Source: Ectocarpus siliculosus (lineage: Eukaryota; Sar; Phaeophyceae; Ectocarpales; Ectocarpaceae). Taken from it: 64,000 nt of DNA. The translations under genes and the position numbers were made by a program. The stretch spans positions 4,059,541 to 4,123,540 of the forward strand of contig FN649752.1 in NCBI GenBank assembly GCA_000310025.1, written 5' to 3'. The notes under the pieces were generated by a model, which searched no databases, was not told the DNA's origin, and was given only the letters and a program-made list of their open reading frames with translations. This document shows, piece after piece, positions 19,701 through 63,926 of this stretch. Positions within the stretch are counted from its first letter, which is position 1. Every line of letters begins with the position of its first letter.

Positions 19701-20330
19701 CTATTAATAGTATCTCTTTTGTTAAGACTTGCACGACCTCCCCTGTTCGGTGCACTCAGCACTAGAAAAGGATATCCGGAGATGTGGGGGTTCCGTGAAC
19801 CAAGTGTTGGTATCACCGTGTTTTTAGGTGGGCGATCGAACCCCCTTCTGCAGTGCGAGGGCCAGCGTGCCCTTTCGACTGGTTAACAAGGTCTTGACTC
19901 ATCTTCGCGCCTCTGACGATAAACACTCCCTACTTGTACCCAACATCTCAGCACTCCCTATTCTCGGACGGATTGCCCTCTTACACCAAATTGTGAAGCA
20001 AGCATCCAATCCATCTTCTTAACGCCTCGGCTTTGAACCTGCGCGTGCTTCCCTCGCCGCGCCTGTGCCCTGTTTTTCTTCCTGCAGCAAGCGTCTACTG
20101 GTACGCTTTTCTCGAGGTCGATTGTGACGGGTCTGGTCGTGTCGGGCGTCCTGGGATTCTTGATGGGGATCGTTTCAGTCATGCAGATTCGCGTCACGAG
20201 TCCGCTGACCCACAACATATCGGGGACTGCCAAGGCGGGTGTGCAGAGCATCATGGCGTTTTACATCTGGGACAACGAGGCGACCGTCTTGGCTTGCGTC
20301 GGTGAGTAGCGCCGCCAGGACCTGGCATGA

Positions 20331-20369
<39 letters not shown>

Positions 20370-27867: not shown

Positions 27868-30800
27868 ATGTTTTGCTGCTGCATGCCCCCGGTCGACCAC
27901 CCACTTGTCAACACAGCACGGGAGTCGCCAAACATTCCATCATCCCTGTGGAGCAAGGCGATGTCAACGTCGCGCAAGCGTAACAAGGCCTCCAAGGGCA
28001 AGAAGTCCAACTCCTCCTCTTCCTCTCGATCTCTCGCCGGTGACGGGGGGGGGGGGGGGTCCAACCAGACTGATATGGCGGGGCTCCAGGAGCCGGGCGG
28101 CGGCGACGCATCGGGAGCGGGGGCGGGGGACGATCCCTGGGTGTGGGAGAAAAAAAAAGCGGCGGGCGTGGCCAAGGCTAAGGCGCCCGCGGGTGACAGG
28201 CTGGTTTACTTCGATCCCCAAATCATCTTGCCTCCGGCGGACAAGCGCAGCGGTGAGTTGAGTCGAGTAGGGGGAGGCGGCACCACATTCCGCAGCCTAA
28301 TACCAGTTTTGGTCAATCTGTTAATCCTGCAGCGCTTGCACGTGTTTGTGGTACGTAGCGTTCCGAAAATGCGTGTGTCCTTACTGCTACACGTCATGCG
28401 TTCCGGCAGTCATCATCGTGAATCGTTGTCTTCCCAAAAGGTGAACGAATAAACGGTTCTTGCGCACGTAGGTACGTCCGGAGGGCCTGGAGAGGGGGGT
28501 ACTCTAAAACCAAGTGAACAGAAAGACCGAAAAAGTGCTATTCTTTAGCTTCGCTAAAAAGTGCTACACCACTTCTGCTGTCGACCTCTCTAGGTAGGCG
28601 TTGTTTCTAGTTTTTTTCGTGGCCCGTTATCTCATTAGACCGCCTCTTTCGTAGATCGCACGTACCCCTCGTTTTCGTATATGTCAACCTCTCGTTTTCG
28701 CTGATGGTCACCTCTCGTTTTCGTAGATGGTTGCCTCTCGTTTTCGCAGATGGTTGCCTCTCGTTTTCGTAGATGGTTGCCTCTCGTTTTCGGAGATGGT
28801 TACCTCTCGTTTTCGTAGATGCCCACCTCTCGTTTTCGTAGATGCTCACCTCTCGTTTTCGTAGATGGTTGCCTCTCGTTTTCGGAGATGGTTACCTCTC
28901 GTTTTCGTAGATGCCCACCTCTCGTTTTCGTAGATGCTCACCTCTCGCGTTCGTAGATGGTTGCCTCTCGCTTTCGGAGATACACTGTTTCGTTGATACA
29001 CTCTCTCGTTGTCGTAGATAGTAACGTCGTTGTCTTCCACCGCATACCACACACACCCTAGAATACACACGAGACGCTTATGATGTAACGAATACTTCAA
29101 GGCTGATCACGATGTGCATATTCGCGCGCCCTTCCGTGCCGCTGACCCTTGCCGCAGCGCCTGGAGGGGAGACGGCGGAGGAGCAAAGGCGGTACAACAA
29201 CCGCTGGATGTTTACGCCTGCCACGGTGCTGTCGGCCGTTGACCCCGAGCCAGGAGTGGTGCTCATCCGAACCAGAGACTCGGCGGTCCACAGGCGAGCA
29301 CCGGTAGTGCGTAGTGCAGTATTATAATGATAGTGTACGTGGTGTGTTTGGTGGAGGGGGCCTGTGCCAGAGGGGCTCCGTGGTTTTGATGGCTGCAAGA
29401 GGGGCTCCGTAGTCTGATGGATTCGAGAGGGGCGCCGTGGTGTGATGGCTGCCCGAGGGGGTCCGTGGTTGATGTCTTGAAGAGAGGCTCCGTGGTTTGA
29501 CGGCTTCAAGACGGGGGCTCCTTGGTAATGTCTTCAACAGAAATTTCCACGACGCGTTGCTTGTGATGGTGTTGTCGTGTGGAGCCCGCGGTGGCATTTT
29601 TTTGTCCCTCCCCAATGTGAGCCCTGCCGGCTCACTAGAGCTCCTGTGATTTTCCCACAATTCCTACAAGCACGCAAGCACACCAGCACACACCTACCTT
29701 TGCATCAGTGGCTCTCTAGGTCTTGACTTTGTGCGGGTGTCGCGGTGGTCTCTATAAAATCGCGACCCCTTCTTTCATCCATATTGACGTGTGTGTCGGG
29801 TTTGTGTCGGTATGCTCTGGGCGGCGATGCCTGCCGTAATGCCGTGCTTAGTGCTGTGGTTGTTCCGTGATCGTGACTGCGATTGGACAGGGCGAATGGA
29901 GCGGAGCTGGAGACAGTCAACCCGCAGGCGTTGGAAGGCGTGCCTGACGCCATGAACGTTTCGAACCTCACGCAGGCCTCGCTGCTGCATACCGTCCGGG
30001 AGCGGTACAACCGTGACGAGGTGAGCCGGAAAGAGGTATTCCCGCGTTGAGGATGGGATAGAGAACAGGTACCTACAGCAGTGGTGAGTTTTCCCCAGGT
30101 AGAGTATAGTATGTACTATGACACCCATCATCTCGTTCAGATGGCTCAGCCCTCTTGATCCGAACCTACTCGTGTTGCGTCGTCAAAACTGAAAATTTAT
30201 GATACCCAAAACTAGAAAAAAGAAATGTACCCAAAACTGGAAATGTTATTATTCCGAACACAGAAACATGGCATTGACGCACCCAACACTTGTATTGCAC
30301 CCTCTGCCAATCGGTTCTATCTCTATTCGTGTTTTGTGCTACACCCATTATCATGCGTGTATCAGAGGTACGAGTCCCTGGGTTGTTTTTTATTCGGCAC
30401 CGTCGCCATCACCTCGACGAGAAACAGGCACCAAACACATCTGTATGGGAAACATGAACCAGTAGTCCAACCCCTTTCTGATATGAGTCGAGAGGACGCA
30501 GCTTGAAAGCGTGAGGAACGGTTTCCCCTCTCCGACAAACACAGCACAACACAATGATGTCACTCCTCAACGCATGGTGCCCTTTACATGGGATATGGTG
30601 TGCATGACAGGTCTACACCCGTGTGGGGCCGGTTTTGATGTCGGTGAACCCGTACAAGTGGATAGTGGGGCTCTACGCCGAGGACGCGATGCTGAGCTAC
30701 CACGGAAAGGCTGCCATGGTTGAGGCGGGAGAGCTCGCCCCGCATCTGTTCGGCGTGGCCGATCACGCCTACTCGGAGCTGGTACGTGCTATTTGGTCGT

Positions 30801-33800
30801 CACGGTCTCCCCACAAGTGGCAGGGGGGGGGGGGGAGGGTCCTGTGTCCCGCAGAAATATGTTGTAAGAAAGAGTAAGGGTATGCATGAGCCGCGGTGTA
30901 CCTTGTATCTGTCAATAGTGGGATTTTTTTTCTCGTTTCTGGCGTTACCTGGCCGTCGAGTCTAGTATTATAGGTGCTCAAAGAGTTGTCGCGGGCTGTG
31001 TTGATGCGGTGGTTGTTTTTTGCCGGAAGAACTCCGGGCTGAAGAGTACGGAAGCATAAGAAGTACTGAAGTGGCGCAATTCCAAACATCATGTTCTTGT
31101 AACGACAACGACAACAACAACAACAACAACAACAACAACAGCAACACCGACGATGATGGCATTGTAGCAAGCAATAAAGTGATAACCTGTAGCAAAACAA
31201 CCGCGGCAACAAATGATCAGGTGAAGGGGCACTTGGAAGCCGAGTCCGAGACTAAGGAGGACGTGCGCGCCAGGAAGGCTAGGGCCTCAAACCAGTCCAT
31301 CATCATCAGCGGGGAGAGTGGGTCGGGCAAGACAGAGGCGACGAAGATCATCATGCAGTACCTAGCCAGGATCACGTCGGGTGAAGCGGTGGGGGCGTCC
31401 GGTGCCGGGTGAGGAACTTGAACTTTGGTTTGAAGCGTTTGCTATTGTTGCCGTTGCAGTTATTGATACTGCTGCTGCTGCTGCTGTTGATTTTGCTGAG
31501 TATTGAGGTAGTGCCTTGTTGCTGTTGGTCCAACGCTCCGTCTCTGCTGGTGCTGGTGCTGCTGCTGCTGCTGCTGTCGGGTGCTGTCTGTACCGATGGT
31601 CTCAAGGCCGCTGTACGCGGTCGACGTCTGCGTGATATGCAACCCTCTTGATTAGAGATCCGTTCACGACAAGTGACACCCCGCCGTATCTTCGCGACGC
31701 CCCCCGATTCGTTTGGCTTTGACATCGAGAAACCCTCCAATCACGAACAATACTCCCATCTCCGTCTCCCCCCTTCTCCCCCACCGGTTTCTGCAGCGAG
31801 GCATCTGATGCGTGCAGAGACTCTCGAGCAGCCAGCGAGGCCATCATGCTGCACGTGGGGGACTTGGAGAGCAGGGTGCTGAGCTGCAACCCCCTCTTGG
31901 AGAGCTTCGGCAACGCCGTGACCCTCAAGAACGATAACTCGTCGCGCTTCGGGAAGTTCATCAAGATCCAGTTCGACAAGAAGGGGAGGATAAGGGGGGC
32001 ACAGGTGAGTGGGGTTGGGGGGTGGTATGGGCGGTGCGATGGGGTGGGGTTTAGGGGTCGCAAAAGTGAGTGAGTGTTGTGGGGAGGGGGGTATGGGTGG
32101 GGTACCGGATACGGCACAAGATAACACAACCCCTGGACCGATTTGCAAAGCTCGCACACTGCACGACGAAGAGGATGTATAAACGAAACGATACGTTTTC
32201 GGAGAGCTCTCCACCAGACGGCTTCAACGCCGGCGCCGTTTTCGGCGTTTTGACGCTTTTCTGCTGTTGAGAAATCGAGCTCTGAAAATAGGTCCAGGGG
32301 GTGTGTTATCTTGCGTCGTATGCGGTAGGGGGGTTGGGGGTTGATATGAGCGGGGCGATGGAGTGGGTTTGGGCGGGAGGGGAGGGAAGGATATCGGGAT
32401 CGCAAAGCGAGTTGAGTGTTTTTATGGGGAGGGAGGTATCGGCTGTGATACGGGGTGCACGAGCGAGGGAGGGGTGCTTGACTCATGCTCATGATTGAGC
32501 AAGAAACTCATGTCACCTTGGTGTTTGCTTGTCTTCCGTAATTGTGGCATTGGTATGACATGCCTCACACATGTGCCACTACTTGTAATATTACCGTTCG
32601 TGTTGGCCGTCCGTGGGTCACTCCTGTACAATACTCTGATCTAACGCCTCTCTCTGTGCGCGTTGCTATGATTGTTCCGTGCTCTTTCGCATGCTACTAC
32701 TACTGTAGATCCAAAACTATCTCTTGGAAAAGACGAGGATCGTGGCCCAGGCAAAAAGAGAGCGGAGCTACCACATCTTCTACCAGCTGCTGGCGGGGTC
32801 GTCCGGTGCCCTTAAGAAGGAGCTCAAGCTGGACAACGGAGTGGCCGGCTTCCAGTGCCTCAAGGGATCCAGCATCAAAGGGGAGGACGCGCCTGACTTT
32901 CACGTACGTACGCGACGGTGGTCGGTAGAGACGTGGTGCGGGTAAGAGGTTTCCTGGAGAGTGTGAAGGCGTTTTTGTGGAGTATTGTCAAGGGGGGGTT
33001 GCGTTCGGGGGCACGTCGATGCATTAGTATCCTTGGTATCCTGTGGAGCGCCGTTATCGATCAACAATAACCCTCGTGGTGGAAGTTGTCCTTGGACAGA
33101 TGTCCTTTTTTTGGACATGGATATCTTTTTGGATACATGCCCTTGGATACATTTCCTTGTGGATACATGTCCTTGGATAGATATGTATTCGTCCGTTGTT
33201 GACTACCTCGGTAGATTTTCCAGTTGCGCGAAACGTGTTTGGGTGCCCTGTTCTCACAAGACCTGACGCATCGCAGACACGCTCCTGAAGTAGCGCATCA
33301 GACACCCCCCCTTTGGTGGCAGTCCTCGCCTTTTGCCTTGAAGCGGCACTTTTTGGAAGCTTGTGTCTTGTCTCTGACTCCTCAATGTGTTGATTCACTC
33401 GTTCAGAGAGTTCCCTCGTCGTCCGAAAGAGCAGCACGTCATGAGAATGAGGAAGCAAACATTGTGCGATAGGGATGCCGGCGGGCACGATCTTTTATTC
33501 CCTAGCCCGTCGGATTTGGCGTGGTTAGGGCGGGCGGTCGTTTTTGTTTGGAGATCGATCGCGCCGTGCGCCTGTTTTGCTGCTGTATGTCGGGAGACAC
33601 ACTTTGTTGTCCCCGATATCTCTAAGCCATCGGAATATACGTGACTAGGGCGAGTCGTTCTATTTGGAGGTGAATCGTGCCGTGTGACGCTTCGCTGATG
33701 CCGCCGTTACCACTGCTGTTGCTGTGCAGCGCACTACGGAGTGCCTGAAGAAGATTGGCGTGCAGCCAGTCAGCATGGACGGGGAGCACGGGCAAGACGC

Positions 33801-39693: not shown

Positions 39694-39730
<37 letters not shown>

Positions 39731-46946: not shown

Positions 46947-46978
<32 letters not shown>

Positions 46979-48196: not shown

Positions 48197-48230
<34 letters not shown>

Positions 48231-48234
48231 TTCG

Positions 48235-48278
<44 letters not shown>

Positions 48279-48309
48279 GCTGTCGTTGTTTTCGTTGTTG
48301 TTGTTTTGA

Positions 48310-48340
<31 letters not shown>

Positions 48341-51300: not shown

Positions 51301-52915
51301 CAGGCTCCGGCATCGGTCACGAAAACAGGAGATGACGTCACCGTGTCCAAGCTCAGGCCCAAGGTATGTACCCTTTCATGCCCCCTGAAGCTTATCTACA
51401 TCCCGCATAGGCTCCATCCTCCGGGTTGTGTGTGCGTTCGTCCCAACTATTCTGGCGGTGGTTTACAGGCCTTTCGGTATATATACCTGACGTATCGGCT
51501 GGGGTCACACAAGAGGAAAGTCACACAAGAGAGATTTTTTTTTTTTTGTTGCCCCACCTTTCCCCCTGTGCGTTCAAGATGAAAACGATGGTTTGTCAGT
51601 GTCTCGGTATGGAATCGGCTATTATGATAGTAATAGGAGCCGATTCGCTTGTTTGGCAAGAGAACACTTGCGACGTGTTGTTCATGACTTGAAACTTAGC
51701 AACGAACGTTCCGATCTTGGCTCATTCGGTCACGTTCGTTGTGATTATGAATCGAACACCAGTAAATTTCCATGATTATTTGCCATGAATCAACCGCAAA
51801 ACCCTAACGCTGACCCACCCCCCCCCGGTTTGTATGTCACCCGCTCTGGTCGGTGCTGTGTCTGGTGTTTGGGTGTGTCCTTTGCCGCAGCCGGCCGTTA
51901 CCGTACCGGAAGGCATGTCCGTGACGGAGGTGTGCAAGGTCATGGCGAACGCGAGGAACGACGCAGCCCTCCTCACCGGGGCCGGCGGTGGCATGACCGG
52001 CATCATTACGGCCATCGACTGCATTCGGTACGTGTGCTCTCTCTGTCGGTGATGCTTTTGTGATGTTTCGGGAAGGCTAGGTGTTTTTGTGCTTGGCTGG
52101 TTGGGCGCTCGTGCTTTTAGATGTCGTGAACGTGGTGTTTTTGTTTTGGGCTTTTGGGGTACTGTACTGTACTGTACTGTACTGTACTGTAGTGTACTGT
52201 TCTGTACTGTAGTGTAGTGTAGTGTAGTTGGACGCTGGGTGTTGCGAAGCGATCGTACAGAAACATGGTACAAGTGCATGTGTGTCGCGGTGTGAGAAGT
52301 GTGCGTGACTGGTTTTTGCCGAAACCTGTTGCGTTTTTCGCGGGGCTTTCGTTCTCAAGCCTGAGGTTGTGCGAAAAGGTCTTGAGAGTTTACTCTCATA
52401 GTGATTCGGTTCCGCAACAGCAGTTTTTAAGGGCATTGTATCGCACGCACGGCCCTGCTTCCTCTCGACCGTATCGTTTCGTCGGTGCCTCTTCGTCAAA
52501 TCGATGGGGTTTCGCTTGTGCCGTTTCGTTTTGTGCTGTTCCGCCGCTTCGGTTTTGCCGTTTCGGTTGTACCGTTTCGGTTGTATCTGTTCATTTGTGC
52601 CGATTAGTCTCTCCGTGCCGTTTCAATGTTGCATTTTATTTGGCGTCGAACAGGCGGGTGGTTGCGGTTAGCGTGGACCCCAACTCGACCGCCGCGAGCG
52701 AGGTGATGACTCCCAACCCTACGACGGTACTATCCGAAGACAGTGCCATGGAAGCGCTGAGCATCATGCTGGGGAGACACTTCAGACACCTTCCGGTGAG
52801 AGGGCGGTGGAGAGGAGAGGGAAGGAGAGGCCTTGCGTTGGGTAGTGGGAAGTGTTCCTTTTGCTGCGTTGTGGCAGGCATGCGAAGCGACAGAACACAC
52901 GAGCGGTTTAAGACG

Positions 52916-53014
<99 letters not shown>

Positions 53015-56000
53015 TAATTTGGTCGGCCATATGTAGGAACGGCTCTGCCCCTTGTATGGTGCGCGTTTTGTGCAAGGATCTTGGTTGGGAAACGCCGCAC
53101 CATTTTCGAGGTCACGTGCACTCTTTTTTTACGCTCACGCCCTCAAGTTTGCGTCCAACCAGTCGTCTACTCAATACCCTCGAAGCGCGGTGTGCTTTGC
53201 TACCCTCCTCGCTCATGCTGCCATCTGGCACGCCGTTTAAACTTGAACCCCCCCACCGCCCCCCCCGGTGTTTGCTATCGGGGTTGGGTTTTCGTCGCTT
53301 GGCAACGACGTTGTAAAACAACCCCCCCCCTCGGTGTTTGCCATCGGGATTGGGTTTTCGTCGCTTGGCAACGACGTTGTAAAACAACCATTTCACTTCG
53401 TGAACTCGGCAACCAGGTTACCGTTTTTTTTTTTGCCTCTGTTTTTTTTTTTGGCGGTAACCATAATGGTGGTCGAGTAGATCATGTTGTGCGGGGTGGA
53501 GAAACCTCACTCCGCGCAAGGGGGATGATCGCACCATGTTGTGTTAAAATGGTCAAGCATCCTCGAGGCAGTTACACAGTGCTTACAACTGTCTCTGGAA
53601 GTGAAAGCACTAGAAAATAAATTAAGTCATACGCAGCTGTCATCCGTACGCAAGGAAGTAAGCACAAGATGCCGAACACCCTTAGCAGGATGCAGCTCAC
53701 CCTTCATGCGACTCGCCGAATACCTCACGGCGCTTCGCGCTTGGTGATGTGGTGCTAACCTGGTCCGGTGAGAACCCGGCGTGCTCCGTCCCGGCTTTGT
53801 AGGGATGCGAGGTCAATGGTCTAACGACTACGGCATGCACGACTATGAGTACACCCCCCCCCCTCCCCCGACGTTCAATTCCAGGTGCGGACCCCCCGGG
53901 GCGACGTTACCGGCATCCTGGACATCGCCAAGTGCCTGTACGACGCTGTGTCTCGCCTGCAGCGCACCGCGAAGCGGAAGTCCGTGGACAGCGGCGAGGC
54001 CGACGAGGCGGAGATGTCGATGCTGGCCGAGCTCGGGAAGGGGAAGGGCAAGAAGAGCAAGGCCGCCATGCAGGCAAGATGATGATGGCGGTCGCACGAG
54101 CGGCGTTGGATGTGCAGAGATCGATTGCGCTCGTTTTTTTTTTTTATCCCCTTTTGCCATCTTGTTGGATTTTTTCCTTCATCTTGGTGTCGTATCGGAG
54201 ATGGGAAGAGAGCGCCACCCCCGTTCATTTTCAACCTCTGGGCCGTTGTGGCCTTGCTGGAACCCAGCCCTGGTTTTTGATCCCACGGCGGTTTCATTTT
54301 TTGGGAAGCTAGTCTTGACGTGTGCCTCGAGCCGGGTACAGTACTGCCATCCCTGCGGTGTGGTCGTTGCACACGTGGGCCAGATGGGCGACTTTGTTCT
54401 GCGTTTCGTCTATGGCTTTAACCCTTCCCCCCCCTTATGGTTGTGTTCGTTGCGTGCCCCCCTCCTTCCCGCTTCGTCCCCAACAACTCAACGTTCAGAG
54501 CAATGTGCTCTATTCCAAGTATTGCCGCCCTGGTTGGGGTAGACATGTTCGTTCCCTCGATGGCGAGCTAGTCCCTTGACGCCAAGCCATGTTCCCTTGG
54601 TTCTTGGTGTGCTCGACAAAGTCTCGAGAACGCGGTTTCCACGTCTCCCTGCTTTTACAATGTTTCTAGTCGTTCTGCGACGCGTGTGCCCTAGAAAACC
54701 CAACCCTAACCCTAACCTATAATAGCCCCCGGGGCGCTGGTTTTCTCGTGCATGTTCAGGCGTTGTTGGCGAAGATGTTCGCGGACGACCCCGAAGGGGG
54801 GACGGGGGTCTCCCTCTCCCTAGCGGAGTTGCTCAAGCTCAAGGGGGAGCCGCAGCTGGTGTTCGCCGATGACAGCGCGAGGGGTGCCGGCAAGGCCATC
54901 GCGCGGGGCCGCAAGGCGGTGAGACGATATTTGTTGTTTTTTGAGGTTGTCACTTTCTTTTTTTCTGGGGCCTTTTCTTTTTTTTTTCGTTCTACTGTAG
55001 AACTTTGTACCCTTCTTGTTGGTTCTTTCTAGAAAGGTACGCCCCTATTTGGGTGGTTGGCTTGTGACCACGGAAGGCGTTGTCCCCATCAGTTGGACCA
55101 GGACGGACCAGTACGGAGTTTAGAAGGTACGAGTACTAAGCAGAGAGCGGAACGTGTTTTTTTAATGTGAGTATGACAGCAACAATACGTTCTGACGCGG
55201 GGCTCACGAAGGTTGCGGTTTTGATCGTTGGTGGTTCTCACAGTTTTTTGCCTTGCTGCTGCTGCTGTCGGCTGAGCAGCCCTAGCCCTACCCCTAACGG
55301 CTTTTCGCTGTGCGGGGATGTCGTCGAGGACGCGCGTCATCGTTGTGAGTTCTAAAGTCAAGCATAGGATGATGGTGATATTTCTGCGGTTCACCTCTTC
55401 TGCCGATTCATAACGCGAAAATGGGGGGACGGGGGCAAGGGGTCTCGTCATGGCTGGTTCGAGAAGATGGTTGTATCAAATATATGTACGGAAGCTTGGG
55501 GGACTGCATTTTTGAACACCGTTGCCCTAGGCCACAAAGGAGATTCATGCACTGTTTTTTCCACGGTTCGGTTTGACGCGGTGCAGGTGCTGGTGGTTGA
55601 CAACGGTGGCCTCGCGGGCATCTTTACGGAAAAAGACATGCTGAACCGCGTGCTGTCGAAGGGGATTAATCCCGATGAGGTTTCGGTTGAAGATGTCATG
55701 ACGCCCAACCCTGACACGGTTTCGTCGACCATGACCGTCCTAGAGGCCTTGCAAGAGGTGAGTGTTTAGACTGTTGCATTGGGCTGTTGACAATGCTGAA
55801 ATGGGCTGTTTGACTCTGCAAGAGGTCAGTGTTTAGACTATTGCATTGGGCTCTTTGAGAGGTGAGCGGTTAGACTATTGCATTGGGCTCTTTAGACTCT
55901 CTGGCTATTTTATGAACCTGGTGCTGGTGTTATTTCACAGGCAGGTGCAACCAAACCCTCCGATTCAGTCCGGTTCTACCCGGAGTTGTGTCAGCCCCCC

Positions 56001-59000
56001 CCCCCCCCCCTCCCCCGTCTCCCATGCCACATCCGGGGAGGGAAATCCGTGCCCCGCTTGGCTTCCTCGGCCCCCCCTTCTTACAACTTGCCAATAGCGC
56101 CTCTTGTTCCGCCACCCTGGTTGTAGCGCCATCATGCCTGCCAGGGGGCTATTGATATGGCGATATGGTCTCGTTATTCCTTTCGTCTTTCGGGGTGCGA
56201 GGGTGTGCCTTTCGACCAAAGAGGACCTTTTAAGTTGCGATCCGGGAGATCGTAAGGGAGGCAGTTCTATTCGATGGGAGAACATCATGTAGAATTGCCT
56301 CCGTTGCGCTCCCCCGCTTCAAAAGTTGAACATCTTGTTCGATCGAAAGGCACACCCTCACCCGCCGAAAGATGGAAACGGTGACGAGAACATATCGCCA
56401 TATCAGCAGCCTCCCGGCAGGCATGATGGTGCTGCAACTAGGGTGTCGGAACAAGAGGCTCTACGGTAAGGTTTGCACCAGGCGAGCCTAGCGAACCCGA
56501 GTCGAGTAGGGCGGGGTAAAGTCGCACACCTGATGGGGGGCATGTGGACCCCGGTACTGTCACAACCCTGAGCAGAATCGGAATGCGTCGATGGGTTTCA
56601 CTTCCTGCCATGCGAAGCCAGACAAGCACGTTGCTGACAAGCACAGCTAGAGAGCCTGCCACACAACGCGATATCGTATTGCTAGACCAGCACTATGCCA
56701 TTCCCGACAACAAAAAATGCTTCATAATAGGAACAGTATATCTCGAAGCTCTTCTTGGTGCACACTCCACAAAAGTGTTCGTCAATAGCCGTAGCCTGCA
56801 AGGCAGTGCCGCTCCCTTCGCCCTTCGGTGTTAAGCAGTCGGATTGACTGGGCAAACGTCTACGCCATAGGTTGCGTAAGAAACCTCCCCCCCCCTGTAC
56901 TCATTGCCCAAACTCGATTACTCCACGACGAAGAGGATGCCAAGATCAAATCGTAACGTTTTCGAAAGTCCCTCGACGAAACGATTCCAAAGCCTTCATG
57001 TTAGGCATCGTCACTGATCTTACTGCAGAGAGAGTTCGGGCTTTGAAGATCAGTCACAAGGGGCTGTGGCATCTTACGGATGAAAACTACGTTAGTGTCC
57101 ATCAGCACTCCGAATGTTGCCATCTCTTTTCGTTTGGCGTGTCGCGGGAGTTGCACCACGACATGAGCTCCCAACGATGGTTGCGTTGGTTGGTGTGCTT
57201 GTTAATTTTGTTGCATGCTTCGAACGCTCTCGCTTTCTCTCGATGCATTTTGATACGTGTCAAATGCATGAGAACCAAGTAATGTTCCGTGCGTGAATCG
57301 CTCTCGCTTTGATTTGTTTCTGTTCGGTCAGATGCACGAGAACAAGTACCTGCACCTGCCGGTGGTGGATGAGGACAGCGGTAACGTGCTGGGGGTGGTG
57401 AGCGTCATGGAGATCATTCAGGCCACGGCGGGCGAGGAGGGAAGCACGGGGTAAGACGTAGGGAAGACTAATGGGGAAGACAAGACAAAGCTAGCACTTT
57501 ACCTGGAGACTTGTGACGAAATTCAAGACTCAGACCGTACACGAACTCAGGGCTGAGGACTGAGACTAGAGGAGGGTCATTTGTTGGGACCAAGGACAAG
57601 ACGGACGTAAGGGTGAATGCATCCTTTACCACACTCTAGGTTGTGACAGGACGATACTGGTTCATCGTGGACGATATACTTTTTGTTGTGGTCCGTTCCA
57701 CTTCAAGGAAAGACGTTGCCAATGCCCCCTCCCCCCCCACGACGAAACTCGTACCATGCACGTGAGAGCAAAGAAAGGACACAAGAATTTGGCCGAAGCA
57801 CGTACCGCAAGAATCAAGAGTCAACATCAAGTTTTATTTCTCAACAGTTTCCGAGAGACAACCCCGCAAAGCATTTCACGCATCGATTCGCCTCGCCGCC
57901 GTCCCGCTCTGTTCTCTGTCCCCATTTTTTTTTTTTCTGTCCCCCCCTATAAAAAGATGGCAAGCGTTGTTCGGGTCGGGGCTGGACGCGACAGGGGACG
58001 GTTTCTCCGACACGTCTTCCCAAGCGAGCATGGGCAGCATCGGCACTCGAGCATCGGCTAGGGTGGGAGTGGGCAGGGGCAAGACCAGCCCCCGCGTGGC
58101 GATGACCCCGTCCGCAGCGTCCTCCGTGAGAGGCAAGGAGCCGCCCAAGAAGACCGATAGTCGACCGGTGTCGATGCTCAAGCCTAAGGTAGGAGAAGAG
58201 CGCGTGGTGTGTTTTGGTCGGGGTTTTTTTGTGGCATGTTGTTGCTGTTGTTGTTTTTCTTGGTGTTTTTGCTCAAGCCTAAGGTAGGAGAAGAACGCGT
58301 GGTGTGTTTTGCCACGGTGTTTTGTGGATTGTTGTCGTTGCTGCTGTTGTTTGTCTTCATATCATGCTGAAGCCTAAGGTAGAAGAGCACGTGGTGTGCA
58401 ATATTATCTTAATTGTTTCCGTGATATGTTGTTGAAGGTTGTTACAGTAGCGGCTACGGTTTAAGAGAACTTATTTAAGAGAAAGTACGGATTTAAGAGA
58501 GAGGAATTGGCGTGTACCAATAACAATCGATTTAAGAGAAATTTCCTTTTGCAGCTGGGATTTTTCTCTTAAATCGAACAATGTGGAAACCACGTGGACA
58601 CACACACCCACACAGCTGCAGACACCATGCCCTGCGTGGCGGGCAGTCGCTGCACGGCTGTCCCCGATCACACGCCAGGCCCGCCGGCGTTCACAAACCA
58701 CCAATGTAGAGGAGTCTGCAGGCAGTACCTCCATGGCACCTGTGGTGTGGTGGACCCTCAGAGCACCTCCGAGATGCATCGCATCTGCCACAACTGCCTT
58801 TCCTCCCGTGAGCGCATGACTTCAGGCTGTAGAGGACAACGTGGAGGTAGCCGAAGCGATCGTTACAGAGATGGTAGAGGACCTCTGTGATGAGAATTTG
58901 GTGGGCATGGATCTTTCCTCTGACGACGAGGACGACGACCTGGTTGAGCTACGCCAATCGGGACAGTCGGTGGCGGCAGCGGCCCCGGCTCCGCCGCCGT

Positions 59001-62000
59001 ACGCGAATGTAGCAAATCATTTTGGTGAACTTGAGGATACTGCCGAGAAGTGCCGCATGTCCGAAGTGTCTTTTCACCTCCGCAAGGCTAAGCTAGCGTG
59101 GATGAGTGCCTACGGTTCGAGGGAAACCAAGCAGACATGCATGAGCGACTTCCTTTGACGGTTGCAGCGCAGATCGTGTTCAGGCTGACAGGTCGCCAGG
59201 GTAGCGTTGGTTTCTTGGGTTTGTGTTATTTGTACGGCGAGTGATGTTTTGATATTGTGAAGCTGTTTTTTGTTCGTTGACTCGTGTTTTTGTCGGGGGT
59301 TCAAATCGATGGGATGAGAGGTATGAGGGTGTTACATATGTTGAGGGTACGGTGGGAGGAAGGTGCAGTGTGTAAACGGGTGCGTCGTTCTTGAGTGCTG
59401 GTGCATTCGTCGCCTCGTGTTGTCCTTCTAGAAGAGGTGCAACTATGAAACCCAGCTATAAAACAACTCAACCAAAACCTTTTACGTGTCCACGTGCAAA
59501 AATGTGCATCGCATCACACGACGATGATTTATTTTTCCGAACGCAGATCCACCAAAAGCGTACAACGTACAGCAGTGCTTGGGTCCACGTGCTTGCCAAC
59601 CAAGAGAATGAGCGGTGTTTGGAGGTAGCCCGACGTAACGCTAGCTGCGCAAGTGACATGCATGATATGCTCTCTTTATGACCTATTTTGGCATTCGAGT
59701 GTAGTCAGTGCGCGAGAGCCCCTGTTTCACGACCTTCAGTTTTGTCTACGATATAAGAGAGAATTCTCTTAAAGTGAGATTCTGTTTAAGAAAATTCTCT
59801 CTTATATGGTAGCCAACACGATATAACAGAAAGCCGGATTTAAGAGAGTGAAATTGGCTTGTACCGACCCTCTCTTAAACCGTAGCCGCTACTGTATTGT
59901 TGTTGCTGTTGTTGCTGTTCTTGTTGTTTTGGCATCAAATACGCGCACACTCGATTTATCGCTGTAGGGCTTTTGCAAAGTATTGCCCGTGTTTGCGGTA
60001 CCACTTGGAATCGTCTCGCGAAAGTGCCTTCCTCCAAACACAATCAAGAGGGCGGTCAAAGTTCGTCAACAGCGTGCCGACGGAAAAGCCGCAAATCCCA
60101 CCCTGTTTTGTTCCCCCTCCAAATCTTGATCGCTTTGCTCGTGAAGCCACCGCTGTGCCTGCCGAGCACCGTAAGCGTGTTGGAGGTGGCCAAGAAGATG
60201 GCTGACGTCCGCACCGATGCTGCGATACTCCTGGACAACAAGGGCCATCTGGAGGGCATCATCAGCGATCAAGACGTTGCGAGGTGCACAGGGTTTCGTA
60301 GTGTTGGGGGGGTCGGACGGTCTTGGTGCCGTTGAGCGGGTTGTGTCTATTGCGCTACAGCAGTGTCACCAAGCGCCGCATTTAATGTCCGAAATTTCTG
60401 TTTTCCACAGGCGTGCATCGTAGCAGGGCGTAAACGAAACCAGCTTTAATGCTTCTTCATTGTACCACTCCATGTCTTGCGTCGCCAGCGGCGTCGTTCG
60501 TGTGTATGGTTATAGTTTTGCTGTTCGTGGTCTGAGGTGGTTGTTGCTGTCGTCGCCGTAATTGATGAATCAGGCGGGTGGTAGCGAACAGACTGGACCC
60601 GTCTTCGACAACGGTGAGCGAGGTGATGACGCCCCACCCGACCATCGTCCACATGGCGGACAGCGCCATGGAATGCCTGGGCATCATGATCGAGAAGCGA
60701 TTCAGACATCTGCCGGTGAGGTTGAGGAAGATATACATTTTTGAAACGTATATCTACAGGCGGTGCCACCGCTTCAAAACCTCTTTTTTTGCCGAGGCTC
60801 ATTCTCTCGTGGCATGTGTTACCCAACAGCGACGATATATGTAGGTGTTAGTATAGTATTGTTCAAACTGAACACCTGTTCTGTGGTGAAGATCTTTGGT
60901 TTCGATTTTCTTTAGCCTGAAGTTGATGATTCCCAGGTTGTTATTTGGCGCCTTTGTCAACCAAAACATGGCGTTGAAGACGAGGATGTAAGACTGTACA
61001 CAGAGTTGTAAAATGTTCGGTGTGGTTCGTTGACGTTCGCTGGGCTCTTCGAGTCAAAAACCCGGAACATCACACCGCGGCCGGAAGCTAGATGTGAGTT
61101 GGTCCTGCTCAATGCTTTCAGTACCATCTTTCATCACCCCTTTAGTGCTCTCATGAGCCAGCCCACTCCGGAGGGACCATCACTTGTATTGTGGACGTAT
61201 GTGATTCGATATGGTCGCCAGGTGATCGATGGCGAGGGAAACGTGACTGGTCTTCTCAGCATCGCCAAGTGCCTGTACGACGCCATCCAAAGGCTCAAGA
61301 AGAAGGCTGCAAGGGCCGAGAACAGCGGCGGTGGCGGTGGCGGCGGCAACGCCAACCTAGCCGCGTCGGTTCTCCAGGTTAGCAGAGCAGGCGTTTTTCC
61401 CGTCGTCACTCTATCTAGCGCAAGGCTTTTTTCTTGCGCTTTGCCGATCAATTTGTACGTTTTAAGGATAGCGTACATCGTGCACACTTACCGAACGCGT
61501 GTAGACCGGGGCCAGAGTAGATGGGACGGATGCCACTGGTGATGATTTGTTCATATTCCGACACGGAAGCATTGCCAACTGCGTCCCCCCAACTCTGGCG
61601 GCTGGCCTCACAAAGAACTTTATGCGTCTGTCAATTCCATTTATTGTGATGGCGTTTTTTATGATGTTTCGGTGTGTCTTGGGGCTCGTCAGCCGGGGGG
61701 TTAACCGCGGAAGGCGACGCGTTTTTTTTTCTTCTGTCTGCGGTGCCTCTTGCCTTCAAATTTGGCCTGACGAGAGTTCAGCTAATCCTCTCCTTCGTTG
61801 ACCGTCAAGTCGGCCTTTGTGTATGCCACCAAGTAACCGCTTTCCAAGTTCTGCTTGAACACGGATATAAGAAAATGAATGCTCAGCAAGGCACGTGTGA
61901 TAGAAAGCCGGGCACCTGCGCGCCCCCCCCCCCCCCCGAAGGTTGGGCTAGTTGTCGTCGTGGTTGATGGGGTTCAACGGTGTAAGTTCGGCTCAGATGG

Positions 62001-63926
62001 CCAACTCCATTGATGGTGTGCGTAAGCTCTCACACCGTGGAAACCCGTTGCGCCATTGTGTTGCGACTCAGATGGCCAACGCCGGGAAGGGCAAGGGCAA
62101 GAACAAGACGAGGGACCTCCAGGCCGCCCTGGCGATGCTGCTGGCCAACTCCTCAGACGAGGCCGAAGCGGTGGGTTGTTTTTGTCTCTCGCCTTCTAGA
62201 TGGATACCTTGCCGCCGGGTTTAGAAAATTACACGCCTCGCGTGGGTGTTCCAGCGATGCTCATTTCGAGCCCGCTGGAAGAAGTTTTTTCTGATGGATA
62301 ATGTAGGGTACAGGGTTAGGGTTAGCCAATAGGGTGGTGTGTCGCATTATTGAGTTCCCGCTAACTGATTGGAAATTGGTCGTTGAGGTGCAGAGATTGC
62401 AGTAGTATTATCGACAACTACCGCTGCCGAGAAATGCTGATCGCCTTGTTTCGGGTCCTTCCTTCATTTCGGGGCCACGCGATTGATGTATCTACCCTGA
62501 CGATACTGCTCGCTATCTGTCACTGCTCTCTCTCGTTGCGGTTTTTTCCTACTGAGCAGAACCATTCCCTCAGAGAAATACTGTCGGAGCAAACGACATC
62601 TTTCGTGGACGGGCGAGACTCAATCACGGCTGCCGCTGCCGCCATCGCCAAGGGCAGAAAGGCGGTGAGACACGCGACGTTTCGGATTTCGGAGAGAAAA
62701 CGTCACATTCGCTGGAACACAACAGACGCGAAAGTCTCCACCGGTCCCTTGCTAGGATTTTCTTGCCCGGGGTATATCTCGGGGTATCTATCTGTTGGCT
62801 TGGTGCTCGAAAACGTTGACCGGCCCGCAGCTAGAGGGAATGTAGGCAAACGTGTGATACCGTCTCGTGGCATTGAAGATGTTGATGTAACCTGCAAGCC
62901 GCCGTCATGTCCGGTATGGAAAATATCGCAGGTTCCTCGGCGATAGGGTGGGATGGTCCACTTCTAGTGCACCGAATGTTTGCCCGTTGCTCTCAGTTTT
63001 TTGTCGCCCTCTTATCTCTGGTCGTGTCTTGATTTTGGTTTCTGCCATCGCCAACCAAGCTGCCTCTGCTTGCTGCTGGTTGTTAACGGCTGTGTAAATT
63101 GCCACTATATATTGCCACGGCAATTAATTTCCTCTTTTTGACAGGTGCTGGTTCTCGACCAGGGGCGACTCGCGGGAATATTGACCCCGAAGGACGTGCT
63201 GATGAGGGTTGTGGCCAAGGAGCTCGACCCAGACCGTACCCCTGTGTCCTCCATCATGACCCCGAACCCAGACACGGTGCCCCCGGAGATGACGGCCGTC
63301 GAGGCTCTCGGAGAGGTATGTGTGGAAAAGCAAGTGCTTTTTGTTCGAGAGAGGTACGGCAAGTGTGGTTTGTGCGTTGAGATACAAGTAATGGTAAGCA
63401 TTTATTTGCGTTCAGAGGATGGCATGTGATTCTTTGAGAGGATGGCAGTGTTTTATTGTGTATATTTGCATGCATAGTTTTTCGCGGTAACTTGAGCCAG
63501 TTTCATGTTTCCGGTTTGTGTGTTTAGTTGTCACAAGTGCGCGAGAGAAGTCAGCGCCACGTTTTGGGTGAAAAAAAATACCCTCGAAAGGGCGCGAGAG
63601 ATATGTAGGCACTGGTGTTTTGTTATGCTTGTACTGCTCGAAAGGTAGGAGTGGGTTGCCGGCGTCATGTACTTGGATGCGCTTCGTGCTTGTGGCGCCG
63701 TTTGATGTTCCGGCCGGGGGTTGTGAAACTGAAACTTTTTTTTTTAATTCAAGACGCTCGCGCGGCGCGCCGTGATGTGCCTGTCTTCCTTTTTTTGTTC
63801 TGGTCAGATGCACGAGAACAAATACCTGCACCTACCGGTGGTCGACCTCGATGTGGGTACCGTGGTGGGGGTGGTGAACGTGATGGAGATTCTGCGGGCC
63901 ACCGCTGGGGACAAGGGCAGTTCGAG
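27868..63926 (+). CDS. giant myosin with UVR-like array and eight CBS domains (3' end beyond window)
   Basis: Forty-four exons (listed in the block entries) form one continuous frame of about 2,261 residues from ATG 27868; every junction is phase-consistent once three GC donors are allowed. Domain order: Gly/Ser-rich N terminus (1-~170), myosin motor (~175-954), basic IQ-like neck (~955-1098), about six UVR-like hairpins (~1099-1460), Ser/Pro/Ala linker (~1461-1569), four CBS domains (~1570-1875), a linker, four more CBS domains (~1953-2261). A motor would move on actin. The UVR and CBS parts presumably form a tail that binds partners and adenine nucleotides; that is inference. There is no stop codon: exon 44 ends in phase 2, so at least one more exon lies outside. 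The N gap at 43867-44060 sits in the intron after exon 20, so separate myosin and UVR-CBS genes remain possible, although exon 21 has no start codon of its own and continues the neck in phase. Confidence 0.72.
28665..28990. repeat. 24-bp minisatellite in intron 1
   Basis: About thirteen copies of a unit like CTCTCGTTTTCGTAGATGGT (24-bp period). A larger block is itself duplicated (28770-28850 and 28868-28945). The minus strand reads as a repeated RGNHLRKRE-type peptide because 24 is divisible by three; this is not taken as coding. Confidence 0.9.
31102..31141. repeat. (AAC)n microsatellite
   Basis: An AAC run lies in intron 4 of the myosin-CBS gene, just upstream of the P-loop exon. Confidence 0.85.
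32105..32322. mobile_element. MITE family A, copy 2 (intron 6)
   Basis: The left end (CAAGATAACACAACCCCTGG, then ACCGATTTGCAAAGCTCG) and right end (CGAGCTCTGAAAATAGGTCC, then AGGGGGTGTGTTATCTTG) are inverted repeats of ~45 bp around a ~125-bp non-coding centre. Confidence 0.8.
34163..34291. repeat. 24-bp minisatellite in intron 8
   Basis: About five copies of GGATCGTGTTCATGTTGCTA plus four bases (24-bp period), differing mainly at one or two positions per copy. Confidence 0.9.
35350..35385 (+). repeat. relic copy of the exon 10 acceptor and exon start
   Basis: GCAGGTGCGCAGCATGGATATG, continuing ATGATGCTGCA, resembles the true acceptor and first ~30 bp of exon 10 at 35493-35525 (GCAGGTGCGCAGCTCG ... 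GATGATGCTGCAG). It lies ~140 bp upstream in intron 9 and could act as a decoy 3' splice site. Confidence 0.55.
35923..36503. mobile_element. foldback element with ~250-bp arms (intron 10)
   Basis: The left arm starts TTTTCAACGCACACCCCATC and includes GATGGGATTCTTCCTGATTCC. The right arm contains GGAATCAGGAAGAATCCCATC and ends GATGGGGGGTGCGTTGAAAA. Smaller inverted matches flank the centre near 36205, including GTCGATTTTG and a GGTACC palindrome. No transposase frame is seen. Confidence 0.8.
36722..36950. mobile_element. MITE family A, copy 3 (intron 10)
   Basis: The left end GCACCCCCTGAACCGATTTT, then CACAGCCCGG, pairs with the right end ATCGAGCTTTGAAATCGGTC, then CAGGGGGTGC. It lies close to the preceding foldback element in the same intron. 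Confidence 0.8.
38183..38214. repeat. telomere-like CCCTAA tract
   Basis: CCTAACCCTAGCCCTAACCC lies in intron 12 of the myosin-CBS gene. Confidence 0.75.
39099..39155 (+). CDS. 57-bp symmetrical exon 14 (candidate cassette exon)
   Basis: Bounded by TTACAG and GTGAGT, this exon enters and leaves in phase 2 and adds 19 residues ([19 protein letters not shown]) to the Gly/Ser-rich surface insert of the motor. Exon 13 can also splice directly to exon 15 without a frame change, so inclusion may be optional. It carries several Ser/Thr that could be regulatory sites; that is inference. Confidence 0.65.
39640..39733. repeat. (GTT)n microsatellite
   Basis: A long GTT/GCT run ends directly at the acceptor of exon 15 and replaces a normal polypyrimidine tract. 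Confidence 0.9.
39919..39970. mobile_element. MITE family A, single end (intron 15)
   Basis: CCGAGCTTTGACGGTCGGTC, then GTGATATCTCGTGCCACC, matches the right end of the other copies. The left end is not clear, so this is a degraded or truncated copy. Confidence 0.55.
40258..40385 (+). repeat. tandem copies of the exon 16 donor region
   Basis: The exon 16 end and donor (TCGATGTAAGATGGATGCCA, then CTGACTGGTCATGAAGCATGT) is followed by two imperfect copies (CGATGTATGGTAGATACCAC and CGATGTAAGGTAGATACCAC), each with the ACTGACT...GTCATG segment. The unit is ~45-50 bp. Confidence 0.8.
41143..41445 (+). repeat. reiterated exon 17 3' end and donor
   Basis: The last ~30 bp of exon 17 with its donor (CATCACTCACCCCAGGTTCG) recurs as CATTGCTCACCCCAGGTTAG (~41257), CATCACCCACCCAGGTACG (~41325) and CATCACTCACCCCAGGTTCG (~41420), with GAACCGTCACGTGAACC-type sequence between. 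The units are ~80-100 bp and imperfect. Confidence 0.8.
43645..46362 (+). CDS. neck block (exons 20-22) of the myosin-CBS gene
   Basis: Exons 43645-43776, 45562-45729 and 46231-46362, all phase 0. Exon 20 completes the converter ([19 protein letters not shown]) and runs into IQ-like helix ([16 protein letters not shown]). Exon 21 has a further IQ-like stretch ([14 protein letters not shown]). Exon 22 continues as basic then acidic helix ([28 protein letters not shown]). Light-chain or calmodulin binding is inferred from the basic amphipathic pattern; the motifs are weak matches to the IQ consensus. The N gap lies in the 1.8-kb intron between exons 20 and 21, so an exon could be missing there. 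Confidence 0.7.
43841..44086. other. assembly gap flanked by homopolymers
   Basis: A poly-C run enters the N stretch 43867-44060 from the left; AAAAAA plus another poly-C run leaves it on the right. The gap size looks nominal, and a collapsed C-rich repeat is likely. Confidence 0.95.
44638..44865. mobile_element. ~230-bp MITE with ~50-bp inverted repeats (intron 20)
   Basis: The left arm GGTTGCAAACTGGAAGCTTG, then TTGAGAT and ACAGGATGAGGTG, pairs with the right arm CACCTCATCCTG, then ATCTCAACAAGCTTCAAGTT and TGCAACC. The centre is non-coding. Confidence 0.8.
45739..45860. mobile_element. MITE family A, left end only (intron 21)
   Basis: AGGTGACACGATGTAAGGTA, then TTACACACCCTGGGCCGACT, resembles the reverse complement of family A right ends. 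It begins within ~10 bp of the exon 21 donor. No matching right end was found. Confidence 0.5.
46678..49983 (+). CDS. UVR-like hairpin array (exons 23-28) of the myosin-CBS gene
   Basis: Exons 46678-46938, 47320-47436, 47904-48086, 48456-48701, 49138-49259 and 49827-49983. Each carries the UVR-type helical hairpin signature of a basic/acidic helix followed by A(x)nYAxAxx[90 protein letters not shown] and [21 protein letters not shown] motifs occur in UvrB/UvrC, ClpC/McsA and plastid EXECUTER proteins, where they mediate protein contacts; six in a row on a myosin is unusual. Exon 24 ends with a GC donor (CAG|GCGAGA); reading through would give a stop two codons later. An exon 23 segment ([15 protein letters not shown]) is flexible. 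Confidence 0.75.
46945..47045. repeat. GTT/GGT-rich simple repeat
   Basis: A degenerate GTTGTT/GGTGGT tract begins directly after the exon 23 donor. Confidence 0.85.
48106..48165. mobile_element. MITE family A, left end only (intron 25)
   Basis: GACGCAAGATACCACACCCT, then GATTTTCCAAAGCTCGAG, closely matches the family A left end. The expected right end is absent; a long GTT run follows instead. Confidence 0.6.
48167..48375. repeat. (GTT)n microsatellite
   Basis: About 200 bp of GTT with occasional TTC/GAT/GCT interruptions; two ~70-bp sub-blocks containing GTCGTTGTTTTCGTTG are repeated. Confidence 0.95.
48739..48852. repeat. (CTGTAG)n hexanucleotide repeat
   Basis: About nineteen near-perfect CTGTAG units start ~40 bp after the exon 26 donor. 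Confidence 0.95.
50038..50257 (+). mobile_element. dispersed ~400-bp repeat, copy 3 (5'-truncated, diverged)
   Basis: It matches the 3' half of the 21864 and 53468 copies, from GTCATGCGCAGCTGTCATCC to GACTATGAGTACGACCCCC, with more substitutions. It lies just downstream of exon 28. Confidence 0.75.
50618..51363 (+). CDS. Ser/Pro/Ala linker (exons 29-30) of the myosin-CBS gene
   Basis: Exons 50618-50800 and 51220-51363, both phase 0, encode ~109 residues of low-complexity sequence (for example [19 protein letters not shown] and [17 protein letters not shown]) that join the UVR array to the first CBS cassette. The end (SKLRPK) resembles the end of the second linker exon at 57957-58188 (SMLKPK), as expected if linker plus CBS cassette duplicated as one unit. 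Confidence 0.7.
51169..51212. repeat. (CTGTCA/CTGTTA)n hexamer repeat
   Basis: About seven hexamer units end ~8 bp before the exon 30 acceptor. Confidence 0.85.
51797..51822. repeat. telomere-like CCCTAA tract
   Basis: AAAACCCTAACGCTGACCC followed by a C run; very similar to the tract at 17104. Confidence 0.55.
51891..57450 (+). CDS. CBS cassette 1 (four CBS domains; exons 31-36)
   Basis: Exons 51891-52027, 52654-52795, 53885-54073, 54760-54918, 55587-55757 and 57332-57450. The order matches plant CBSCBSPB-type proteins: CBS1 ([20 protein letters not shown] ... GIITAIDC), CBS2 ([19 protein letters not shown] ... [19 protein letters not shown], then AKCLYDAV), a spacer ([13 protein letters not shown]), CBS3 ([20 protein letters not shown]) and CBS4 ([19 protein letters not shown] ... 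[19 protein letters not shown]). Paired CBS domains form Bateman modules that usually bind AMP, ATP, ADP or S-adenosyl-methionine; ligand binding here is inference. Exon 33 uses a GC donor (CAG|GCAAGA), needed to avoid a stop. Confidence 0.85.
52160..52228. repeat. (ACTGT)n pentanucleotide repeat
   Basis: Thirteen or so ACTGT/AGTGT units lie in intron 31. Confidence 0.9.
52919..53013. repeat. (GA)n microsatellite
   Basis: Nearly uninterrupted GA dinucleotide run of about 47 units in intron 32. Confidence 0.97.
53266..53392. repeat. 63-bp direct repeat, 2 copies
   Basis: GGTGTTTGCTATCGGGGTTG through GGCAACGACGTTGTAAAACA is followed by C-rich sequence and then repeated almost exactly. Confidence 0.9.
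53468..53873 (+). mobile_element. dispersed ~400-bp repeat, copy 2
   Basis: Nearly identical to the copy at 21864 (scattered single-base differences and a small indel). Its C-rich 3' tail ends ~12 bp before the acceptor of exon 33, so the element appears to supply the pyrimidine tract of that 3' splice site. Confidence 0.85.
54695..54719. repeat. telomere-like CCCTAA tract
   Basis: CCCAACCCTAACCCTAACCT lies ~40 bp upstream of exon 34. Confidence 0.75.
55745..55905 (+). repeat. tandem copies of exon 35 end and donor
   Basis: The exon end/donor TTGCAAGAGGTGAGTGTTTA, then GACTGTTGCATTGGGCT, recurs as CTGCAAGAGGTCAGTGTTTA (~55817) and CTTTGAGAGGTGAGCGGTTA (~55852), each followed by GACTATTGCATTGGGCTC. 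Confidence 0.85.
56098..56463. mobile_element. ~366-bp foldback element with ~130-bp arms (intron 35)
   Basis: Left arm: GCCTCTTGTTCCGCCACCCT, CCATCATGCCTGCCAG, GATATGGCGATATG, GTGAGGGTGTGCC-like. The right arm from ~56340 to 56463 is its reverse complement with ~10% differences (GGCACACCCTCACCCGCC ... CATATCGCCATATC ... CTGGCAGGCATGATGG-like ... GGAACAAGAGGC). No coding frame. Confidence 0.85.
56850..57095. mobile_element. MITE family A-like copy (intron 35), diverged
   Basis: The left end (GGTTGCGTAAGAAACCTCCC, then CCCAAACTCGATT) and right end (GAGTTCGGGCTTTGAAGATC, then GGGGCTGTGGCATCTTACG) are loosely inverted. The internal sequence shares CGACGAAGAGGATG with the 32105 copy. Confidence 0.55.
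57957..58188 (+). CDS. inter-cassette linker (exon 37)
   Basis: This exon enters in phase 2 and leaves in phase 0. It starts [20 protein letters not shown], a motif that also follows the fourth CBS domain in plant CBSCBSPB proteins, and continues as a basic Ser/Thr/Pro-rich stretch ending [10 protein letters not shown]. It shows that cassette 2 is linked to cassette 1 rather than starting a new gene: there is no stop and the next exon starts in phase 0. Confidence 0.75.
58170..58400 (+). repeat. tandem copies of exon 37 end and donor
   Basis: The exon end/donor GCTCAAGCCTAAGGTAGGAG, then AAGAGCGCGTGGTGTGTTTT, recurs at ~58272 (nearly exact) and ~58367 (GCTGAAGCCTAAGGTAGAAG). The spacing is ~95 bp, with GTTGTT-rich filler. 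Confidence 0.9.
58442..59898. mobile_element. pogo/Tigger-like DNA element (1.45 kb) with 26-bp TIRs and TA duplication
   Basis: The left terminus TA|CAGTAGCGGCTACGG, then TTTAAGAGA, and right terminus TCTCTTAAA, then CCGTAGCCGCTACTG|TA, are perfect inverted repeats of 26 bp that include the TA target. Sub-terminal sequence repeats ATTTAAGAGA several times on both sides. CAGT termini, TA duplication and repeated ATTTAA-type motifs are typical of the pogo/Tigger branch of Tc1/mariner. No intact DDE transposase is visible; short frames inside are annotated separately. It sits in the intron between exons 37 and 38. Confidence 0.82.
58627..59158 (+). pseudogene. degraded ORF inside the pogo-like element
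   Basis: One frame from ATG 58627 reads a Cys/His-rich segment ([14 protein letters not shown], then [11 protein letters not shown]) of possible zinc-binding type. A second frame, open to the TGA at 59156-59158, continues with [20 protein letters not shown] and an acidic stretch (SSDDEDDDL). The two are separated by a frameshift near 58815, or by an 18-bp GT...AG segment too short for a normal intron. Together they look like the C-terminal remnant of an element-encoded protein; I do not recognise the family. Confidence 0.45.
60147..63926 (+). CDS. CBS cassette 2 (four CBS domains; exons 38-44; gene continues past window)
   Basis: Exons 60147-60283, 60574-60715, 61222-61377, 62072-62170, 62560-62664, 63145-63315 and 63808-63926. 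It repeats cassette 1: CBS5 ([20 protein letters not shown] ... [10 protein letters not shown]), CBS6 ([19 protein letters not shown] ... [18 protein letters not shown], then AKCLYDAI), a spacer ([13 protein letters not shown]), CBS7 ([20 protein letters not shown]) and CBS8 ([19 protein letters not shown] ... [19 protein letters not shown]). Four exon lengths are identical to cassette 1 (137, 142, 171, 119 bp) with the same phases; the middle part has a different intron arrangement. The last exon ends in phase 2 at a GTACGT donor, exactly as in cassette 1, so a further exon starting with a WQALFG-like motif, perhaps followed by a PB1 domain, is expected beyond 64000. Confidence 0.85.
61990..62075 (+). 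other. duplicated in-frame 3' splice site at exon 41
   Basis: GCTCAGATGGCCAACTCC (acceptor at 61995-61996) and ACTCAGATGGCCAACGCC (acceptor at 62070-62071) are 75 bp apart. The intervening 25 codons are open and in frame, so either acceptor keeps the CBS frame. Confidence 0.65.
62308..62326. repeat. telomere-like TTAGGG tract
   Basis: Two to three TTAGGG units in the orientation opposite to the other tracts, between exons 41 and 42. Confidence 0.65.

What the first reader, a model, noticed from the sequence alone, without database searches (positions are those of the whole stretch)
27868..63926. Candidate single gene fusing a myosin motor to a UVR-like array and eight CBS domains
Seen: 44 exons, all phase-compatible, run from an ATG through intact myosin P-loop, switch I, switch II and converter into IQ-like helices, six UVR-like hairpins, a linker and two four-CBS cassettes, with no stop. 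Known: CBS pairs bind adenine nucleotides and UVR motifs mediate protein contacts. Inferred: an actin motor whose tail could sense adenylate charge or a related ligand. I know of no described myosin with this tail.
Basis: partly seen in the sequence, partly recalled or inferred. Interest (0 to 1): 0.9.

Follow-up and report, generated by a model that had tools for sequence, protein, structure and literature searches.

The report
Known type of CBS-tailed algal myosin
The sequence very probably holds one long gene joining an actin motor to a string of CBS (ligand-sensing) domains, but it runs well past the window, and motors of this build were already described in 2007 from stramenopiles (the group of brown algae, diatoms and water moulds).

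Summary
Pfam finds a complete motor (E 5e-192), 16 CBS domains (8 in the window) and PB1 (1.6e-8); a hydrophobic anchor ends the protein. [quoted passage not shown] The order matches; motor phylogeny was not testable. Caveats: no transcripts; the gene finder favours joining (forced splits cost 19-45 nats, but over a longer range it also ran into the next gene), so unity rests mainly on the published architecture. The six 'UVR-like' hairpins are a real repeat, but only 1 of 6 reaches E 5.6e-4, below Pfam's UVR cut-off. Likely role, inferred: membrane-anchored motor whose CBS modules sense adenine nucleotides. New member of a known kind.

The parts
27961..28252 (+). Exon 1 (ATG 27961; alternative in-frame ATG 27868, first upstream in-frame stop 27850)
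   Evidence: gene model
29891..43776 (+). Exons 3-19: myosin motor domain (Pfam Myosin_head covers aa 161-908, profile 2-679 of 679) running into the neck
31311..31346 (+). P-loop [12 protein letters not shown] (aa 274-285)
   Evidence: coordinates worked out from the exon table
31930..31959 (+). Switch [11 protein letters not shown] (aa 351-360)
   Evidence: coordinates worked out from the exon table
37116..37139 (+). Switch [10 protein letters not shown] (aa 582-589)
   Evidence: coordinates worked out from the exon table
43645..46362 (+). Exons 19-21: neck, one near-consensus IQ ([11 protein letters not shown]) and further IQ-like helices judged by eye
   Evidence: no Pfam IQ hit
43867..44060 (.). 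194-base assembly gap after a run of 27 C, inside intron 19; could hide an exon
46678..49983 (+). Exons 22-27: six tandem ~44-aa helical-hairpin repeats (aa 1096-1392), UVR-like
50618..51363 (+). Exons 28-29: linker without a Pfam domain
51891..57450 (+). Exons 30-35: CBS cassette 1 (4 CBS, aa 1488-1792)
57957..58998 (+). Exons 36-37: inter-cassette linker, acidic in its second exon (by eye)
60167..63926 (+). Exons 38-44: CBS cassette 2 (4 CBS, aa 1928-2230). The gene goes on past the window: cassettes 3 and 4, PB1, hydrophobic C-terminus, stop at 78166 in window coordinates (C27:4137706)

Best explanation
The locus is one gene, about 50 kb, 62 exons, 3,194 aa, for a myosin of the architecture published as class XXIX: motor, short neck, six helical hairpins, four cassettes of four CBS domains (16), PB1, hydrophobic C-terminal anchor. 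Shown: the open frame, the domains and their order. Inferred mechanism (about 0.4 likely as a whole): the intact ATPase motor walks on actin; the last ~20 residues insert into a membrane as a tail anchor, so the cargo is an organelle or vesicle; CBS1 and CBS3 of each cassette (8 of 16 with [ST]xxD) bind adenine nucleotides, so that ligand state changes tail compaction or motor release; PB1 and the hairpin array bring in partners or oligomers. The confidence given is for identity and architecture.
For: One path from ATG to stop with 61 introns (56 GT, 5 GC donors) chosen by a gene finder free to split, over 26000-80700; forced splits at 12 positions cost 19.0-44.8 nats. Pfam: Myosin_head 5e-192 full length, CBS 8+8 stretches, PB1 1.6e-8. 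TTAIGIAAVAVVSVVAIFM is the most hydrophobic 19-residue stretch of the protein (mean 2.4, aa 3171-3189), followed only by SRGRK and the stop. The tail is single copy as far as seen: 21 of 21 CBS-cassette matches and 6 of 6 hairpin matches in the genome lie in this gene (best candidates only are scored). Published architecture matches in order.
Against: No transcript data. Without GC donors the chain broke into three genes, at 47445 and 54082, where stops follow CAG|GC. The finder merges readily: with the range extended to 92900 it ran past 78166 into exons of the next, galactosyltransferase-like gene, gaining 3.6, 11.4 and 20.9 nats at the three penalties, a margin like the 19 nats that hold the neck together; so the finder alone settles neither the gene's unity nor its end. 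It has no promoter or poly-A term and was trained on this gene. A 194-base gap lies in the neck intron. Pfam finds no IQ. No class-XXIX sequence was at hand, so motor phylogeny is untested, and the class number may have changed: the 2017 revision lists classes 1, 4, 30, 31, 75 and 81 as common to most stramenopiles and leaves brown-algal orphans. Ligand, anchor and cargo are inferred.
Confidence: 0.87

Rival explanations
1. Two neighbouring genes on the same strand: an ordinary unconventional myosin ending near 43.8 kb and a separate hairpin-CBS16-PB1 membrane protein starting near 45.6 kb.
For: Intron 19 (1785 bases, the longest of 61) contains an assembly gap; an ATG at 45589 lies in exon 20; the forced split in 45.0-45.5 kb is the cheapest of the 12 tested, 19.0 nats; the finder is prone to merge neighbours.
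Against: The best model joins them in phase 0 across CTGCAG|gtaaag and cgcag|CCG; myosins with this whole order are published. No AATAAA or ATTAAA lies in 43777-45562, but none lies within 1.2 kb after the predicted stop either, so that says nothing.
Confidence: 0.1
2. The motor belongs to another or an orphan class that acquired or kept a class-XXIX-like tail, so the gene is not a class-XXIX member by phylogeny.
For: The 2017 classification leaves Ectocarpus and Saccharina orphans, and 'class-29', 'class-XXIX' and 'Myo29' do not occur in its main text; the nearest solved motors are generic (myosin-X, class II, VIIa).
Against: The tail order matches the 2007 class description.
Confidence: 0.2
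3. The CBS array is purely structural (spacer or dimer scaffold) and binds no nucleotide.
For: 8 of 16 CBS lack the [ST]xxD motif (IAK or VME instead).
Against: The other 8 keep it, always in positions 1 and 3 of each cassette (4 of 4 and 4 of 4), although cassettes are only 47.5-60.7% identical.
Confidence: 0.25

Closest known systems
Class-XXIX myosins of stramenopiles (Odronitz & Kollmar 2007, PMC2375034; passages and section 17 read)
   Same: Motor, neck, helical region, many CBS domains (up to 18 published, 16 here), PB1, C-terminal transmembrane-like segment, in that order
   Different: Three IQ motifs are published, here at most one scores by pattern and none by Pfam; the helical region is a six-fold UVR-like hairpin repeat, which the parts I read call only 'short coiled-coil regions'; motor phylogeny not tested
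Plant CBSCBSPB proteins (PMC2694836, passages read)
   Same: CBS domains followed by PB1 (the order in the plant proteins is recalled; the passages give the content)
   Different: No motor; [quoted passage not shown]
UVR motif of UvrB/UvrC (PF02151) and the ClpC middle domain
   Same: Hairpin 6 scores 20.0 bits, E 5.6e-4, against PF02151; the two best PDB matches of the hairpin profile are the chains of 6emw, ClpC-type ATPase pieces (E 0.038, 0.13). That the ClpC middle domain carries a UVR-type motif is recalled
   Different: Below Pfam's cut-off (21.5); five of six hairpins show no UVR hit; the PDB matches are not significant

Membership tests
Class-XXIX myosin | Complete myosin motor domain | tested here: met
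   PF00063 E 5e-192, profile 2-679/679
Class-XXIX myosin | Three IQ motifs in the neck | tested here: inconclusive
   No Pfam IQ hit; one near-consensus motif [11 protein letters not shown] by pattern, others only by eye
Class-XXIX myosin | Short coiled-coil regions after the neck | tested here: inconclusive
   Helix-type six-fold repeat found; no coiled-coil predictor was run
Class-XXIX myosin | Up to 18 CBS domains in the tail | tested here: met
   16 CBS, 8+8 stretches
Class-XXIX myosin | PB1 domain after the CBS array | tested here: met
   PF00564 E 1.6e-8, 34.8 bits, cut-off 23.6
Class-XXIX myosin | C-terminal transmembrane domain | tested here: met
   Hydropathy maximum of the protein at aa 3171-3189 of 3194; hydropathy only, and it holds if the stop at 78166 is the true end
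Class-XXIX myosin | Motor domain falls in the class-XXIX clade | not testable with these tools
   No class-XXIX reference sequence in the collections at hand
Class-XXIX myosin | Stramenopile origin | not tested
UVR motif (PF02151) | Score above Pfam gathering cut-off | tested here: not met
   Best of six hairpins 20.0 bits against 21.5; the other five show no UVR hit

The most novel reading that the evidence does not exclude
The helical region of this CBS myosin is a true six-fold UVR-type docking array, a feature for which a search of the held papers found no mention with myosin, making the protein a membrane-tail-anchored motor that couples adenylate sensing by 16 CBS domains and UVR/PB1 partner docking to organelle transport on actin.
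Probability: 0.25. Interest if true: 0.5.

Novelty: new member of a known kind. Interest (0 to 1): 0.27.

Why it matters
It supplies an exon map of a whole CBS-tailed myosin and finds its tail single copy in this genome. The architecture makes a clear question testable: does an actin motor read the cell's adenine-nucleotide state through its tail? No functional study of such a myosin appeared in the listings of the searches made here (titles and starts of abstracts seen).

Tried and rejected
Rejected: 'no described myosin with this tail'. Rejected: the gene ending at the window edge. Rejected as models: the first run with exon penalty 6 (188 exons, many tiny and judged spurious) and the run without GC donors (three genes, broken at 47445 and 54082, the last of them running on to 84457). 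Rejected as the gene's end: the longer-range runs that join the next gene, because the next exons resemble a galactosyltransferase, the joining intron (2.7 kb) is longer than any of the 61, and the hydrophobic C-terminus before the stop fits the published class; this is a judgement. Led nowhere: viral-contig scan with a cassette-3/4 query (no match); UVR family search of the own genome (one hit, elsewhere); PB1 family search of the own genome (three hits, none in this gene, probably because its PB1 is split between exons). PDB search with CBS cassette 1 found 38 CBS sequences, best 4fry_A at 4e-10, no closer kin. Papers: 'class XXIX' with myosin 0 papers; 'UVR domain' with myosin 0 papers; myosin, CBS, PB1 and brown algae 0 papers; CBS, XXIX, PB1 and UVR do not occur in the main text of PMC3942036. 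Supplements have cap 0 and the metagenome collection has cap 0, and no eukaryote collection is on hand, so no other stramenopile was compared.

Full report
What is there. The window lies at C27:4059541-4123540 of an unnamed 189 Mb genome. CBS matches continue past its right edge, to C27:4134251, so I fetched the next 46 kb and modelled the plus strand with a splice-aware gene finder of my own, seeded with 41 exon peptides. A first run was too permissive. A stricter run without GC donors broke the chain into three genes at two places where a stop follows CAG|GC. Allowing GC-AG introns gave one chain over 26000-80700 at each of three exon penalties: ATG 27961 to TAA ending at 78166; at penalty 12, 62 exons, 3,194 aa, 56 GT and 5 GC donors, introns 253-1785 bases with median 592.

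One gene or two. The finder could end one gene and start another at any place and did not. Forcing a break at 12 positions in 44.1-51.8 kb lowered the score by 19.0 to 44.8 nats, least (19.0) at 45.0-45.5 kb in the neck intron that holds the gap. The best reverse-strand score was 27 against 1366, and three base shuffles gave 0. Against this: the finder was trained on this gene, has no promoter or poly-A term, and is prone to merge. With the range extended to 92900 it passed the stop at 78166 and joined exons of the next gene, gaining 3.6, 11.4 and 20.9 nats at penalties 14, 12 and 10.5. So its verdict is limited support, both for unity and for the end. The stronger ground is that the whole order of domains, from motor to C-terminal membrane segment, is a published class.

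Domains. Pfam gives Myosin_head over the whole profile at 5e-192, 8 CBS stretches in cassettes 1-2 and 8 in cassettes 3-4, and PB1 at 1.6e-8. P-loop, switch I and switch II are intact. The closest solved motors by sequence are myosin-X, then other unconventional and class-II myosins (151 sequences matched, 60 shown). The protein's most hydrophobic 19 residues are at aa 3171-3189 of 3194, followed only by SRGRK, which fits a tail anchor. No Pfam IQ is reported.

Hairpins. Six ~44-residue units repeat with a shared aromatic-x-x-[AC] turn; I aligned them by hand on that aromatic. With a profile of the other five, each unit outscored every one of its 999 shuffles (951-995 of which got a score at all). 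Shuffling keeps composition only, so part of that could come from general helix patterning. Against Pfam only hairpin 6 touches UVR (E 5.6e-4, 20.0 bits, cut-off 21.5). The profile's top PDB matches are the two chains of 6emw, ClpC-type pieces, at E 0.038 and 0.13, not significant; that the ClpC middle domain carries a UVR-type motif is recalled. 'UVR-like' is fair; 'UVR' is not shown.

CBS cassettes. The four cassettes are 47.5-60.7% identical; 2 and 3 are closest. In the pattern list (19 matches, 16 of which I assign to CBS domains), CBS positions 1 and 3 of each cassette end in G-h-h-[ST]-x-x-D in 4 of 4 and 4 of 4 cassettes; position 2 has IAK and position 4 VME instead. That this motif contacts nucleotide is recalled from CBS structures and was not tested. 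All 21 cassette matches and all 6 hairpin matches listed for the genome fall in this gene (only best candidates are scored), so no paralogue of the tail was detected.

Comparison with the known. [quoted passage not shown] The present protein follows that order. Class 29 is still listed for diatoms in 2024 (PMC11420354, passages). In the 2017 revision (PMC5583752, passages) the terms class-29, class-XXIX and Myo29 do not occur in the main text, and some Ectocarpus and Saccharina myosins are orphans, so the class number by motor phylogeny remains open.

Verdict. The gene is a new member of a known kind. What remains open is transcript proof, its function and the nature of the hairpin array.

Noticed in passing
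window 17829-21316 (+): Gene model (5 exons) with a triose-phosphate transporter family domain (PF03151, E 3.4e-28).
   Followed up: partly
window 12541-546 (-): A weak gene model (score 6.9) with a potato inhibitor I domain (PF00280, E 6.4e-13) and, by eye only, a RING-box-like peptide; perhaps two genes merged.
   Followed up: partly
window coordinates about 83656-85092 (+), beyond the window: Two exon pieces with weak galactosyltransferase matches (PF01762, E 3.5e-4 and 5.1e-5), taken as the next gene downstream; the gene finder joins nearby exons to the myosin if allowed.
   Followed up: partly
window 28647-28981: Minisatellite of 23/92-base units (13.9 copies of the 23-mer) in intron 1; other tandem arrays at 34164-34289 and 40259-40380.
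   Followed up: no
G000 C27:364574-367410, C2:9214133-9216780, C4, C18, C19: Seven of 12 Pfam CBS matches listed for the genome lie outside this gene, two of them on the same contig.
   Followed up: no
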